Positions 36,731 to 41,606 of a stretch of DNA of 64,000 bases are shown here, in pieces; position 1 is the first letter of the stretch; each line of letters opens with the position of its first letter. This DNA is from Chloroflexota bacterium (lineage in GTDB: Bacteria; Chloroflexota; Anaerolineae; JAAEKA01): contig JAYELL010000100.1 of assembly GCA_034717495.1 (NCBI GenBank), positions 1 to 64,000 on the forward strand, in the 5' to 3' direction. The notes beneath the pieces are model-generated. The model saw nothing but the letters and a program-made list of their open reading frames with translations. It ran no database searches and was not told the origin of the DNA. Both the position numbers and the translations under genes were made by a program.

Positions 36731-36865
36731 CTGGTGACCAATAGAATCACTACCTGCCGCCGCCTTCGAGTGTAGCTGAAGACGGTACGGGTGTCAAACC
36801 ATGCGTTTCCGGGATTTGCCCGGCGACTGCTCGAGCAGTATTCAGAACGTTCGCGCCATGATCTG

Positions 36866-36894
36866 TTGCCAGCCTGTCGGAAGTTTGGTATACT
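36866..36894 (+). promoter_or_regulatory. Promoter of the purine-catabolism operon
   Basis: TTGCCA (36866-36871) and TATACT (36889-36894) are 17 bases apart, giving a leader of about 37 bases to the deaminase ATG. Confidence 0.55.
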
Positions 36895-36937
36895 CGCCAT
36901 GGGCGTCCTGCCCGATGAAACCACTGGAGAGACTTCG

Positions 36938-38299
36938 ATGTCAACCCTTCTGTTGAAAAACGCCGATCATCTCATCACCATGGATCGGGAACGTCGCCAG
37001 ATCAGCGATGGCAGTCTTCTGGTGCGTGATAATGTCATCGAGCAGGTGGGACCGGCTGGTGACCTGCCCGGACACGCCGACCGGGTGATCGATGCCCGTG
37101 GTATGGTGATCCTCCCCGGGCTGGTCAACACCCATCATCATCTCTACCAGACGCTCACCCGTTGCATCGCCCAGGACGAAGGCTTGTTTAACTGGCTCAG
37201 AACCCTCTATCCGATCTGGGAGGACCTGACACCCAAGGCGGTCTATGTTTCAGCCAAGGTGGGTCTGGCTGAACTGCTTCTAAGTGGATGTACAACTTCC
37301 AGCGATCACCTGTACCTCTATCCAAATGGCAGCCGGGTCGACGACGAGATCCGTGCTGCTCAGGAGATCGGAATCCGTTTTCATGCCACGCGGGGCTCCA
37401 TGAGTCTGGGCGAAAGCAAGGGTGGTCTGCCGCCGGACAGCGTGGTCGAGGAAGAGAGTTTCATCCTTCAAGCCTGCCAGAGGGCTATCGAAACCTTCCA
37501 TGATGCCGATCGCTACGCGATGATACGGATAGCTTTGGCTCCTTGTTCACCCTTTAGCGTTACCCCTGACCTGATGAGGGAAAGCGCCGCGATGGCACGG
37601 CAATTCGGCGTTCGGCTGCATACCCATCTGGCTGAGACGCTGGACGAGGAAGCCTTTTGTCTTGAAACTTTTGGTAGAAGACCTGTGGAATATGTCGAGG
37701 AGCTGGGCTGGACCGGTGATGATGTCTGGCATGCTCACTGCGTTCATATGAACAGCCAGGAGATAGCGCTCTTTGCCCGTACCGGAACCGGTGTGGCCCA
37801 TTGCCCTGCCAGCAACATGCGACTTGGCAGCGGCATCGCACCGATAAGGGCATTGAGGGATGCTGGCGCCCCGGTCGGTTTAGGCGTAGATGGTTCAGCC
37901 AGTAATGACTCCAGTCATTTACTTGCCGAGGCGCGTCTGGCACTATTGTTACAGAGAGTTCAGGGGGACGCTGGTATTCTCGGTGCCCAGGAAACCCTGG
38001 AGATGGCAACCCTGGGAGGAGCGGCTGTTCTGGGCCGGGATGATATCGGCGCGTTGGCGCCAGGTATGGCGGCTGATTTTATCGGTTACGAATTGGAACG
38101 CCTGGAGTTCACCGGCGCCCGCCATGATCCCCTGGCGGCGCTGGTTTTCTGCACACCCGTCAATGTGGACCTGTCCGTGGTCAATGGACAAACCCGAGTT
38201 GACCAGGGTCAAATCGTGGGCCTGGAAATGCCGGACCTGATACAACGCCACAACGCCATCAGCCGTGCCTTGATTCGGGGAGAGCGAGTACCTGGATGA
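36938..38299 (+). CDS. 8-oxoguanine deaminase (amidohydrolase family)
   Basis: This 453-residue enzyme closely follows the 8-oxoguanine deaminase pattern of the cytosine deaminase/TrzN group. It has LPGLVNTHHHLYQTLTR (metal HxH), ELLLSGCTTSSDHLYL, RFHATRGSMSLGESKGGLPP, IALAPCSPFSVTPDLM, RLHTHLAETLDEE, WHAHCVHM and GLGVDGSASNDSSHLL with the metal aspartate. It would convert 8-oxoguanine to urate, linking oxidative damage or purine salvage to urate catabolism. GGAGAG six bases before the ATG sets the start. It leads an operon with a sirtuin and a hydantoinase and diverges from the class V aminotransferase gene. Confidence 0.92.
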   Translation: MSTLLLKNADHLITMDRERRQISDGSLLVRDNVIEQVGPAGDLPGHADRVIDARGMVILPGLVNTHHHLYQTLTRCIAQDEGLFNWLRTLYPIWEDLTPKAVYVSAKVGLAELLLSGCTTSSDHLYLYPNGSRVDDEIRAAQEIGIRFHATRGSMSLGESKGGLPPDSVVEEESFILQACQRAIETFHDADRYAMIRIALAPCSPFSVTPDLMRESAAMARQFGVRLHTHLAETLDEEAFCLETFGRRPVEYVEELGWTGDDVWHAHCVHMNSQEIALFARTGTGVAHCPASNMRLGSGIAPIRALRDAGAPVGLGVDGSASNDSSHLLAEARLALLLQRVQGDAGILGAQETLEMATLGGAAVLGRDDIGALAPGMAADFIGYELERLEFTGARHDPLAALVFCTPVNVDLSVVNGQTRVDQGQIVGLEMPDLIQRHNAISRALIRGERVPG

Positions 38300-38321
38300 G
38301 CCAGGTTTCGAGTAGTGACCC

Positions 38322-39086
38322 TTGACCATTCCAACGTCAAACCTCGTTCAGCAGGCTGCCGCAATCATCGAAACTGCCCAACAGATGGTGGTGCTCACCG
38401 GAGCAGGCATCAGCAAGGAAAGTGGTATCCCCACCTTTCGTGAAGCGCAGGATGGGCTTTGGGCTCAATATGATCCCGAACGTCTGGCAACCATGCAGGG
38501 GTTTCTGTCCAATCCGAGGTTGGTGTGGGAGTGGTATCAATCCCGGCTAACGAAGGTGCGGCATTGTGAACCCAATCCAGGCCATCGAGCCATTGCCGAC
38601 CTGGAACGACTCCTGCCCGGTGTTGTGGTTGTGACCCAAAACATCGACAGCCTTCATGCCAGGGCTGGCAGCAATGATGTGATCGAACTCCACGGCAACA
38701 TCGGCCGCTTCAAATGCCTGCATGGACACCTGAATCTATCAATGGACGACCTGGCCGATCAGGCAACGATTCCTCCCCTTTGTCCTCACCCCAAATGCGA
38801 TGCCATGGTGCGCCCAGACGTCGTATGGTTTGGAGAGATGCTGGATGACGCGGTAATCAATCGGGCGTTCGAGGAAAGCGAGGCCTGTGACGTCATGTTG
38901 ATCGTCGGTACCAGTGGTGTGGTAACGCCTGCGGCCAATCTGCCCTATTATGCCAAACAATCTGGTGCAGTGATCGTCGAGGTTAACCCTGTGCCCAGCG
39001 CACTGACCCACCTGGCCGATGTTTTCCTCGCCGGCCCGGCGGGTGAAATGCTGCCAAACGTGGTAGCGAAGTTGAGCGAAAAATGA
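38322..39086 (+). CDS. Sirtuin-type NAD-dependent protein deacylase
   Basis: This 254-residue Sir2-family protein starts at TTG 38322, the only in-frame start before the family N-terminus. It has the NAD motif LTGAGISKESGIPTFR (25-40), TQNIDSLHARAG (105-116) with the catalytic His in IELHGN (H124), and RPDVVWFGE (164-172). The zinc site is unusual: the first pair reads C132-L-H-G-H rather than C-x2-C, and the second is C154-x4-C159. Histidine may substitute, or the site may be weakened. Bacterial sirtuins regulate acyl-CoA and other metabolic enzymes. Its stop overlaps the hydantoinase start by four bases (ATGA), a tight link to nucleobase catabolism. Confidence 0.9.
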   Translation: MTIPTSNLVQQAAAIIETAQQMVVLTGAGISKESGIPTFREAQDGLWAQYDPERLATMQGFLSNPRLVWEWYQSRLTKVRHCEPNPGHRAIADLERLLPGVVVVTQNIDSLHARAGSNDVIELHGNIGRFKCLHGHLNLSMDDLADQATIPPLCPHPKCDAMVRPDVVWFGEMLDDAVINRAFEESEACDVMLIVGTSGVVTPAANLPYYAKQSGAVIVEVNPVPSALTHLADVFLAGPAGEMLPNVVAKLSEK

Positions 39087-40744
39087 ATCAATCAATCTTA
39101 ATCCAACACGGCACCCTGATTACTCCTGGTGGTCCGTTGAACGCCGATATGCGTCTGGCAGATGAGCGAATCCACAGCATTGGTTTGGATCTGGAGCCAG
39201 AGCCTGGCGAAGAGGTTATCGATGCCTCCGGATGGGTAGTGTTGCCCGGCATCGTGGATCCCCATACCCACATCCAGCTCGATACTGGCATTTATCAGAC
39301 GCCCGATGACTGGGATGTAGGCACCCGCACGGCAGCCTGTGGCGGAGTCACTACGGTAATCGACTTCGCTACCCAATTCCCAGGTCAAAATGTGCGGGAG
39401 GCCGTGCAGAATCGTCTCGATGAAGCCCATGACATGGCCCACATTGACTATGGGCTGCATGTGATGCTGACTGAGATTCCTGCCAACGATGCCGATCTGG
39501 AGGACTGGATGGGAGATCTGGTAGCGTTGGGAACACCGTCGGCCAAGATTTACACCACCTACCGCCCCAATTACTACCAGGATGACGATTCGTTGCTTCG
39601 GGTGTTCCAGGCAGCTGCACGGCAAGGGGTCATTGTCATGGTTCATTGCGAAAACGATGATCTGGTCACAGCTGCTACCTCGCGGCGGCTGTCTGAAGGC
39701 AAGACAGCCCTGGCATTTCATGGTGAGGCGCGACCTGCACTGGCTGAGGTCGAGGCAGTCAATCGTTGCCTGTTGCTGGCAAAAGAGGCCAACTGCCCTT
39801 TGTACGTGGTGCATTGCTCCGTCGGGCGCTCGGTTCTGTTGATCGACGCTGCCCGACAGGCCGGCCAGGTAGCGTATGCTGAGACCTGCCCCCAATATTT
39901 GCTGTTGGATGAAAGCGCCTATCGTGGAGACCATCCCGAATGGGCAATCATGCAACCGCCGCTGCGGCAGGCTGATCAACGTGAGACACTTTGGCAGTTG
40001 ATTGAGGGCGGCAAAGTGAGCAGCATTGGCACCGACCACTGTGATTACACCCTTCAACAGAAGGTTGGGCTTCAACCTCTTGAGCAACCTGACGTGCAAA
40101 AAGCGCTGGTCGCACTCACAGACGATGAACGGGAAATGGTCACCCTGCGGGCTGGACTGCGCGATGGCTGGCGGCGAGAGTGGACTGAGGTGGCTCGATC
40201 GATGGGTCGATCACGCGATGCCGTACGTCGCATGGAGACCGACGCCATTCGTTGCCTTCAGGACGCCGATGGTGCTCTGGAGGCCATTCGGGTGGCAACC
40301 GAACTCAACGGTCATCCCCGGCTATCCTTTTCCGAAACCCCGGGCGGCATCCCCGGTCTGGAGACCTCTTTGCCATTGCTGGCAACCTACGGAGTGGCCG
40401 CAGGCCGGTTGTCATGGACCCAACTGGCGCGGCTGATGGCCACAAATCCTGCCAGGCTGTTTGGCTTGTTTCCCCGCAAAGGTGCCTTGATACCGGGCGC
40501 CGACGCCGATGTAGTGATATTTGACCCTGGCGTTCAGTGGACAGTCAAGGCCGGCGATCTGCATAATATCGCCGGGTATACCCCGTACGAAGAGCGGCGT
40601 CTTCAGGGGCGTGTGCGTACAACGATCAGTCGCGGCAAGATCGTTTTTCGTGGCGGTGAATTCAGGGGCGAACAGGGCTGGGGTCAGTTTGTAGAGGGAC
40701 GGATTTCCGGGGGCAAGGCTGGGCTCGGGGAATCTGGCCTGTAG
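39083..40744 (+). CDS. Dihydropyrimidinase/hydantoinase-like amidohydrolase with inserted sigma-4-like helix-turn-helix
   Basis: This 553-residue cyclic amidohydrolase has all metal ligands: H61 and H63 (DPHTHIQ), the carboxylated lysine K155 (AKIYTTY), H188 (VHCEND), H244 (VVHCS) and D318 (GTDHC). Relatives run directly from GTDHC...QK to F..TPGGIPGLE. Here about 85 residues (329-413) are inserted at that point. Residues 341-394 (nt about 40103-40264) read like sigma-70 region 4: LTDDEREMVTLRAGLRDG, then WTEVARSMGRSRDAVRRMET and AIRCLQ. The rest is a normal barrel, so the enzyme is probably active on a dihydropyrimidine, hydantoin or allantoin. DNA binding by the insert is inference. It is translationally coupled to the sirtuin. 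Confidence 0.88.
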   Translation: MNQSILIQHGTLITPGGPLNADMRLADERIHSIGLDLEPEPGEEVIDASGWVVLPGIVDPHTHIQLDTGIYQTPDDWDVGTRTAACGGVTTVIDFATQFPGQNVREAVQNRLDEAHDMAHIDYGLHVMLTEIPANDADLEDWMGDLVALGTPSAKIYTTYRPNYYQDDDSLLRVFQAAARQGVIVMVHCENDDLVTAATSRRLSEGKTALAFHGEARPALAEVEAVNRCLLLAKEANCPLYVVHCSVGRSVLLIDAARQAGQVAYAETCPQYLLLDESAYRGDHPEWAIMQPPLRQADQRETLWQLIEGGKVSSIGTDHCDYTLQQKVGLQPLEQPDVQKALVALTDDEREMVTLRAGLRDGWRREWTEVARSMGRSRDAVRRMETDAIRCLQDADGALEAIRVATELNGHPRLSFSETPGGIPGLETSLPLLATYGVAAGRLSWTQLARLMATNPARLFGLFPRKGALIPGADADVVIFDPGVQWTVKAGDLHNIAGYTPYEERRLQGRVRTTISRGKIVFRGGEFRGEQGWGQFVEGRISGGKAGLGESGL

Positions 40745-40818: not shown

Positions 40819-40838
40819 GAGTGCACAGGAGAAAAAGC

Positions 40839-41606
40839 GTGACAGTCTACACCGTTCGCCGGTTGGCAAGCCTGGCAGGGATAAGCGTCCGGACGCTACA
40901 CCATTACGACCATATCGGACTGCTGAAGCCGTCCGATCGTACAGCCGCTGGCTACAGGCTTTACGCCGAAGAGGATCTGCTGCGGCTGCAACAGGTCCTC
41001 TTCTTCAAAGAGCTTGATATGCCGTTGGCGGAGATTCGAGATATCCTTGACAGCCCGGGATTCGATCGGGTCGAGGCTCTCGATCATCACCGGCAACTGT
41101 TACAGCAGCGAATGGTGCGACTGAATCGCCTCCTGAATACGATCGACAAGACGATCAATAAGCTTACGGAGGATACCATGACGCTGACAGATGAAGAGCT
41201 GTACGAGGGTTTTTCCAGGGAACAGATCGAGCGTTACAAGCGTGAGGCTCAGGAACGCTATGATCCTGAACTGGTGCAGGAGTCTCAACGCCGTGTGAGC
41301 GAGATGTCGAGGGATCAGTGGAAAGCCACACAACAGGAAAGCGAAGACGTCGCCCGGGCCCTGGCGGATCTGGCCGATCAGGACCCAGCGGCACCCGAGG
41401 TACAGGCGCTTATCGTCCGCCACCATGCCTGGATCGAGGTGTTCTATCCCTGCTCAGCCGACGTCTACCGCGGCCTGGGGATGCTCTATGTGCAAAACGA
41501 GGAGTTCAGGGCATTCTACGACAAGTACCGGCCTGGATTGGCCGATTTCATGCAGGCGGCCATGACGGTCTATGCTGATGCGGTGTTGGAGGAGATGGCG
41601 GAGTGA
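40839..41606 (+). CDS. MerR-family regulator with TipAS-like effector domain
   Basis: This 255-residue regulator has the MerR winged helix (YTVRRLASLAGISVRTLHHY, then GLLKPSDRTAAGYRLY, residues about 3-50), a dimerisation helix (about 75-115), and a C-terminal helical domain like TipAS (EELYEGFSREQIERYKREA, and FYPCSADVYRGLGMLYVQNEEF near the end). TipAS domains bind large peptide antibiotics or other hydrophobic ligands. The GTG at 40839 follows AGGAG by seven bases; an earlier in-frame GTG (40821) precedes that site. No obvious efflux target is next door, so the regulon is unknown. Confidence 0.9.
   Translation: MTVYTVRRLASLAGISVRTLHHYDHIGLLKPSDRTAAGYRLYAEEDLLRLQQVLFFKELDMPLAEIRDILDSPGFDRVEALDHHRQLLQQRMVRLNRLLNTIDKTINKLTEDTMTLTDEELYEGFSREQIERYKREAQERYDPELVQESQRRVSEMSRDQWKATQQESEDVARALADLADQDPAAPEVQALIVRHHAWIEVFYPCSADVYRGLGMLYVQNEEFRAFYDKYRPGLADFMQAAMTVYADAVLEEMAE

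What the first reader, a model, noticed from the sequence alone, without database searches (positions are those of the whole stretch)
39083..40744. Sigma-70 region 4-like helix-turn-helix inserted in a hydantoinase active-site loop
The enzyme has every metal ligand, but right after D318 (GTDHC...QK) about 85 extra residues occur. Residues 341-394 read almost like RpoD region 4 (DEREMVTLRAGLRDG, then VARSMGRSRDAVRRME). The normal chain then resumes at TPGGIPGLE. A DNA-binding module embedded beside an active site suggests a metabolite-sensing transcription factor, or a domain whose access changes with substrate.
Basis: partly seen in the sequence, partly recalled or inferred. Interest (0 to 1): 0.85.

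Follow-up and report, generated by a model that had tools for sequence, protein, structure and literature searches.

The report
Sigma-factor domain inside a hydantoinase
In two families of Anaerolineae (Chloroflexota) bacteria, a ring-opening enzyme (a hydantoinase) carries, beside its active site, a copied piece of the protein that normally recognises promoters (sigma-70 region 4); the fold has been kept by selection, but in one of the two families the DNA-reading residues are mostly gone, so the piece has probably been recruited for a new job.

Summary
The 553-residue protein at 39083-40744 (+) is a D-hydantoinase/dihydropyrimidinase-type enzyme with all metal ligands. Eighty-three extra residues sit in the loop after the last ligand (D318). 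They are a real homologue of sigma-70 region 4: Pfam Sigma70_r4 scores above its cut-off, the family profile hits SigA/RpoD region 4 at 4e-14, and AlphaFold plus Foldseek give the sigma4 fold. It resembles primary (RpoD/SigA-type) sigma much more than ECF sigma.

It is not an assembly chimera. All 6 genomes of the window's family and all 10 orthologue-bearing genomes of a second family have it at the same site with the same junctions, under purifying selection. Nineteen close orthologues read directly lack it, and 17 more align as if they did. The data fit one acquisition.

The "metabolite-sensing transcription factor" reading is unproven and not supported as the common function. Sigma's -35 contacts are partly kept in the window's family (Arg378, Arg382) but mostly lost in the other, the insert is charge-neutral, and neighbouring genes differ.

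Best reading: a domesticated sigma4 fold acting as an accessory module on the active-site face (lid, subunit or partner contact). DNA binding remains possible in the window's family.

The parts
39083..40063 (+). Hydantoinase catalytic core, N-terminal part (residues 1-327), with metal ligands H61, H63, K155, H188, H244, D318 and catalytic Tyr160
   Evidence: TIGR02033 above cut-off; ligands invariant in 46 homologues; Foldseek 1k1d TM 0.96 by target length
40064..40327 (+). Inserted segment, residues 328-415 (88 aa where close orthologues have 5), in the loop after metal ligand D318
   Evidence: alignments with insert-less orthologues; same junctions in 16 genomes
40103..40264 (+). Sigma-70 region 4 homologous part of the insert (residues 341-394); model helices at 336-343, 347-357, 367-374 and 378-394 form the sigma4 fold
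   Evidence: Pfam PF04545 25.1 bits, own-genome hit 40103-40261; PDB profile hit E 4.4e-14; AlphaFold pLDDT 94.6 overall; Foldseek top 50 all sigma region 4
40214..40264 (+). Helix corresponding to the sigma recognition helix (residues 378-394, RDAVRRMETDAIRCLQD); keeps Arg378 and Arg382, which match sigma R409 and R413 (Taq numbering)
   Evidence: alignment to sigma factors of the same and related genomes
40265..40327 (+). C-terminal helix (398-406) and linker back to the enzyme; a weakly conserved part of the insert
   Evidence: AlphaFold; dN/dS by segment
40328..40744 (+). Hydantoinase core, C-terminal part (residues 416-553 plus stop), resuming at F..TPGGIPGLE
   Evidence: PDB alignment 414-538
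36791..38299 (+). Upstream 8-oxoguanine deaminase gene; its homologue is directly adjacent to the insert-bearing hydantoinase in two genomes of the other family
   Evidence: NF006055 704.6 bits, cut-off 532; gene order in L093 and L101
38322..39086 (+). Sir2-family NAD-dependent protein deacylase gene, overlapping the hydantoinase start by 4 bases (ATGA)
   Evidence: NF001753 289 bits, cut-off 243; ORF coordinates

Best explanation
SHOWN (by sequence and model): this is a D-hydantoinase-type amidohydrolase in which a complete primary-sigma-type region 4 was inserted, most simply once, into the loop after the metal ligand D318, and was then kept by purifying selection in two Anaerolineae families. 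INFERRED: the sigma4 fold has been domesticated as an accessory module of the enzyme. It is tethered by two short linkers on the catalytic face of the barrel, so it most likely caps or gates the active-site entrance and/or makes a subunit or partner-protein contact in the expected homotetramer; it does not select promoters. Catalysis itself should be ordinary hydantoin, dihydropyrimidine or related purine-ring-product hydrolysis. Residual DNA binding is possible in the window's own family only.
For: Homology: Pfam hit in 16 of 16 carriers; SigA region 4 at E 4.4e-14; inserts match RpoD-type sigmas of the same and related genomes at 35-53 bits against 20 or less for the remaining, smaller sigmas; Foldseek gives sigma4 for all 50 listed hits, for example 1rio_H TM 0.90 by target length, rmsd 1.0 A over 59 columns. 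Reality and age: 6/6 genomes of the window's family and 10/10 orthologue-bearing genomes of family f15 carry it; one clade not rejected, p-AU 0.30. Constraint: insert dN/dS mostly 0.1-0.4 against 0.06-0.22 in the core. Fold kept, DNA face not: Taq-equivalent G389, D392, G393 invariant and E400, E416, A419 nearly so across all carriers, while in f15 R409 is lost in 10/10 and R413 in 7/10, although both are invariant in all 11 sigmas compared. The insert is roughly neutral in charge, K+R 8-17 against D+E 9-18. The enzyme is intact. The insert is better defined in the whole-enzyme model (blocks 82-97) than alone (83.2 mean), which weakly suggests docking.
Against: No coordinates or PAE were available, so docking of the module on the active-site face is inferred from topology only. 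The window's family keeps Arg378 and Arg382 (sigma R409, R413) in all six genomes, which a purely structural role does not require. Loss of DNA-contact positions is not statistically greater than loss of other sigma-invariant positions (Fisher p 0.24 for f1, 0.70 for f15). No core residues clearly co-vary with having the insert beyond four positions.
Confidence: 0.55

Rival explanations
1. Trigger enzyme: the hydantoinase binds DNA through its sigma4 module, four copies per tetramer, and substrate or product bound at the adjacent active site changes access to that module, so the enzyme senses its metabolite and regulates genes.
For: The domain is a true HTH of DNA-binding ancestry. All six proteins of the window's family keep Arg at sigma R387, R409 and R413, D or E at E410, and S at T408. 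The HTH is under purifying selection there, dN/dS 0.06-0.32.
Against: Sister family f15 carries the same insert with R409 lost in 10/10 and R413 lost in 7/10. In the window's family R379, L398, E399, Q414 and K418 are replaced, some by acidic residues. The charge is neutral. Gene neighbourhoods are not conserved, so there is no obvious target.
Confidence: 0.22
2. Sigma mimic: the module presents a sigma4 surface to a protein that normally binds sigma4 (RNA polymerase beta-flap, an anti-sigma or an activator), coupling the enzyme to transcription by protein contact, in the manner of PhyR, which uses a sigma-like domain to bind NepR.
For: Scaffold positions of sigma4 are kept while DNA contacts decay. 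The longest Foldseek alignments are to sigmaA region 4-beta flap tip chimeras (7kug, 7kuf, 8cyf; 81-90 columns), so the extra C-terminal helix may fill that groove.
Against: No partner gene is conserved nearby. If the insert's own C-terminal helix fills the flap groove, the groove is not free. No co-occurrence test was possible.
Confidence: 0.13
3. Nearly neutral passenger: the domain was acquired by accident, folds independently and is tolerated, with no function beyond not disturbing the enzyme.
For: The insert evolves faster than the core and its head and tail are variable. Orthologues at about 60% core identity do without it.
Against: It is retained by every orthologue found in two families at dN/dS well below 1, with invariant scaffold residues.
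Confidence: 0.08
4. Assembly or gene-fusion artefact in one metagenome-assembled genome.
For: The source genome is in 120 contigs.
Against: The same insertion with the same junctions is present in 16 independent genomes of six genera.
Confidence: 0.01

Closest known systems
D-hydantoinase/dihydropyrimidinase (TIGR02033; 1k1d, 1gkp, 1yny)
   Same: Whole catalytic core, metal ligands, carboxylated-lysine position, Y160; 30-32% identity in the structural alignment to bacterial D-hydantoinases, TM 0.96 by target length
   Different: Solved relatives align in two pieces on either side of a middle stretch that they do not match, with no region 4 insert. The substrate-loop PNG of classical enzymes is PGG here, as in insert-less orthologues
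Sigma-70 region 4 of primary sigma factors (PF04545; SigA/RpoD, e.g. 1ku7, 1rio, 4g6d)
   Same: Complete region 4 by sequence and fold, including the R.GL.DG motif and the turn
   Different: Sits inside an enzyme with no regions 2-3; several -35-contact residues are changed, and in family f15 most are lost
PhyR-type sigma mimics (from the literature: PMC4598750, PMC5830050)
   Same: A sigma-like domain fused to a non-sigma protein
   Different: PhyR joins a sigma-factor domain (ECF-type, from general knowledge) to a response-regulator domain, not inserted in an enzyme; no NepR-like partner was identified here
Trigger enzymes that bind DNA (PutA, PepA, BirA; from general knowledge)
   Same: Metabolic enzyme plus a possible DNA-binding module
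   Different: Those modules are N-terminal or part of other folds; DNA binding is untested here

Membership tests
D-hydantoinase/dihydropyrimidinase | Family profile above curated cut-off | tested here: met
   TIGR02033 409.1 bits, cut-off 393.25
D-hydantoinase/dihydropyrimidinase | Binuclear metal ligands: 4 His, carboxylated Lys, Asp | tested here: met
   H61, H63, K155, H188, H244, D318 invariant
D-hydantoinase/dihydropyrimidinase | Substrate-loop Asn (PNG motif after the D318 loop) | tested here: not met
   PGG in the window and in its close orthologues with or without the insert; PNG in several more distant homologues. Substrate class therefore uncertain; filed as hydantoinase-type by profile and ligands, not as a proven dihydropyrimidinase
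D-hydantoinase/dihydropyrimidinase | Hydrolysis of hydantoin or dihydrouracil | not testable with these tools
   needs an assay
Sigma-70 region 4 domain (PF04545) | Profile match over cut-off across the full model | tested here: met
   25.1 bits, cut-off 24.1, model positions 1-49 of 50; 16/16 carriers match at E <= 0.1
Sigma-70 region 4 domain (PF04545) | Sigma4 fold | tested here: met
   AlphaFold of the insert alone pLDDT 83; Foldseek top 50 all sigma region 4
Functional sigma factor | Region 2 present (core binding, -10 recognition) | tested here: not met
   No other sigma region in the protein
Functional sigma factor | -35 contact residues of region 4.2 | tested here: not met
   3 of 9 sigma-invariant contact positions kept, as group consensus, in each carrier family
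DNA-binding trigger enzyme | Specific DNA binding altered by substrate | not testable with these tools
   needs EMSA/footprinting with and without ligand

The most novel reading that the evidence does not exclude
In the window's family, the hydantoinase is a metabolite-gated DNA-binding protein: a homotetramer displaying four sigma-4 modules beside the active sites, with changed -35-like specificity and substrate-dependent access, i.e. an enzyme turned regulator by capture of a promoter-recognition domain.
Probability: 0.18. Interest if true: 0.88.

Novelty: new variant of a known kind. Interest (0 to 1): 0.66.

Why it matters
It is a clear natural case of a primary sigma factor's promoter-recognition domain being captured inside a metabolic enzyme and maintained over deep divergence. 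It gives a graded series (insert-less orthologues, carriers with residual recognition-helix residues, carriers without) in which one can test whether a DNA-binding fold was repurposed as an enzyme lid or contact, or kept as a metabolite-linked regulator. It also warns that Sigma70_r4 hits in these genomes are not always transcription factors.

Tried and rejected
Assembly artefact: rejected, 16 independent genomes. Ordinary hydantoinase lid: rejected, solved relatives and close orthologues lack the segment and it has sigma4 homology. ECF-sigma origin: rejected, scores of 20 bits or less against 35-53 for RpoD-type. Other chimeras of the same kind in these genomes: five odd long frames with Sigma70_r4 hits were fetched; by eye four are ordinary ECF-type sigmas and one a response regulator, with upstream in-frame sequence. 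Conserved neighbour as target or partner: none, apart from the 8-oxoguanine deaminase in 3 genomes. Core positions co-varying with the insert: only four weak ones. Insert outside the class: the plasmid search listed only two-piece hydantoinase hits among its top ten; a 400-genome phylum sample found it only in genomes already known. Literature: no paper in the held library joins hydantoinase or amidohydrolase with sigma region 4. The one genome-contig scan returned a single insert-less homologue.

Full report
OBSERVATION. The ORF at 39083-40744 (+) encodes 553 residues. It scores over the curated cut-off of the D-hydantoinase/dihydropyrimidinase model TIGR02033 (409 bits) and matches solved D-hydantoinases in two pieces, about residues 7-325 and 414-538. 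The metal ligands H61, H63, K155, H188, H244 and D318, and Y160, are invariant in 46 homologues. Between QK327 and F416 it has 88 residues where close orthologues have 5. Pfam Sigma70_r4 covers 341-393 above its cut-off.

CONSERVATION. A search of relatives and of 396 genomes of the class found 51 genomes with a close orthologue. In 16 the protein aligns in one piece through the insert: all 6 genomes of the window's own family (f1) and 10 genomes of family f15. A full look at f15 (20 genomes) found the orthologue in those same 10, all with the insert. In the other 35 the best aligned piece ends at 306-332, as expected without it. Nineteen close orthologues were read directly and lack it: 18 from those genomes plus one from genome contigs. 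The only organism name obtained is 'Anaerolineae bacterium' for that insert-less relative, so the class is taken to be Anaerolineae. All 16 inserts hit Sigma70_r4 (best 4.5e-10). The junctions QK.G..P and PF[ST] (SF in the window itself) are shared by both families. A core-only tree needs two changes of state, but a single clade of carriers is not rejected (p-AU 0.30); shared junctions and a shared sigma4 origin make one acquisition, perhaps with one loss, the simplest reading.

WHAT THE INSERT IS. A profile of the 16 inserts finds SigA/RpoD region 4 in the PDB at 4.4e-14. Against sigma factors from the same and related genomes, it scores 35-53 bits with RpoD-type proteins and 20 bits or less with the remaining, smaller sigmas. 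AlphaFold gives the whole enzyme at mean pLDDT 94.6 with the insert confident, and the insert alone at 83.2. Foldseek returns sigma region 4 for all 50 listed matches, E 2.4e-3 at best but probability 1.00, with 1rio_H at TM 0.90 by target length and rmsd 1.0 A. The whole model matches D-hydantoinases at TM 0.96 by target length.

SELECTION AND DNA CONTACTS. Pairwise dN/dS in the insert is mostly 0.1-0.4, somewhat looser than the core (0.06-0.22); one very close pair gives 0.57 from few changes. Positions were mapped to Taq SigA numbering (Taq sequence and the list of -35 contacts from memory; ten sigmas from these genomes agree at every contact except K418, which is Q in three). Scaffold positions G389, D392 and G393 are invariant in all inserts, and E400, E416 and A419 nearly so. 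Of contacts, R387 is kept everywhere. R409 and R413 are kept in 6/6 of f1, but R409 is lost in 10/10 and R413 in 7/10 of f15. R379, L398, E399, Q414 and K418 are replaced in f1. The excess loss at contact positions is not statistically significant, so this is suggestive. The inserts are about neutral in charge.

CONTEXT. The window gene overlaps a Sir2-type deacylase and follows an 8-oxoguanine deaminase (704.6 bits, cut-off 532). In G019 and G188 (f15) the deaminase directly precedes the hydantoinase; elsewhere neighbours differ. This hints at purine-ring catabolism but shows no conserved regulatory target. The classical substrate-loop Asn is Gly in this whole subgroup, so the true substrate is open.

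MECHANISM. In amidohydrolases the last Asp ligand ends barrel strand 8 (established knowledge), so the loop after it lies on the catalytic face, and short linkers (about 8 residues each in the model) must keep the module there. Most likely (0.55) it is a domesticated accessory domain acting as lid, subunit contact or partner contact. Rivals: DNA-binding trigger enzyme, most plausible in f1 (0.22); sigma mimic (0.13); passenger (0.08). None has been tested biochemically, and no coordinates or PAE could be examined here.

VERDICT. A real, conserved capture of a primary-sigma region 4 by a hydantoinase, for which no description was found in the held papers.

Noticed in passing
window 36791-40744: 8-oxoguanine deaminase, Sir2 deacylase and hydantoinase lie in one tight same-strand run; the deaminase-hydantoinase pair recurs in two genomes of another family (L093, L101), suggesting a purine-breakdown unit.
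   Followed up: partly
window 40328-40360 (residues 416-426): The substrate-loop motif is TPGGIPGLE instead of the classical IPNG.PG.E in this orthologue group, with or without the insert, so the substrate may not be a standard hydantoin or dihydropyrimidine.
   Followed up: no
L012:1492-3207, near residue 119 of the window numbering: The f15 protein in L012 carries a second, short extra segment (about 17 residues, Pro-rich) before the IDY motif that the window's family lacks; the lengths of the other f15 proteins suggest that they share it.
   Followed up: no
window 40821-41606: A MerR-family regulator gene with a long C-terminal region (TipA-like, judged by eye) follows the hydantoinase; no corresponding gene turned up beside the relatives' hydantoinases that were read.
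   Followed up: partly
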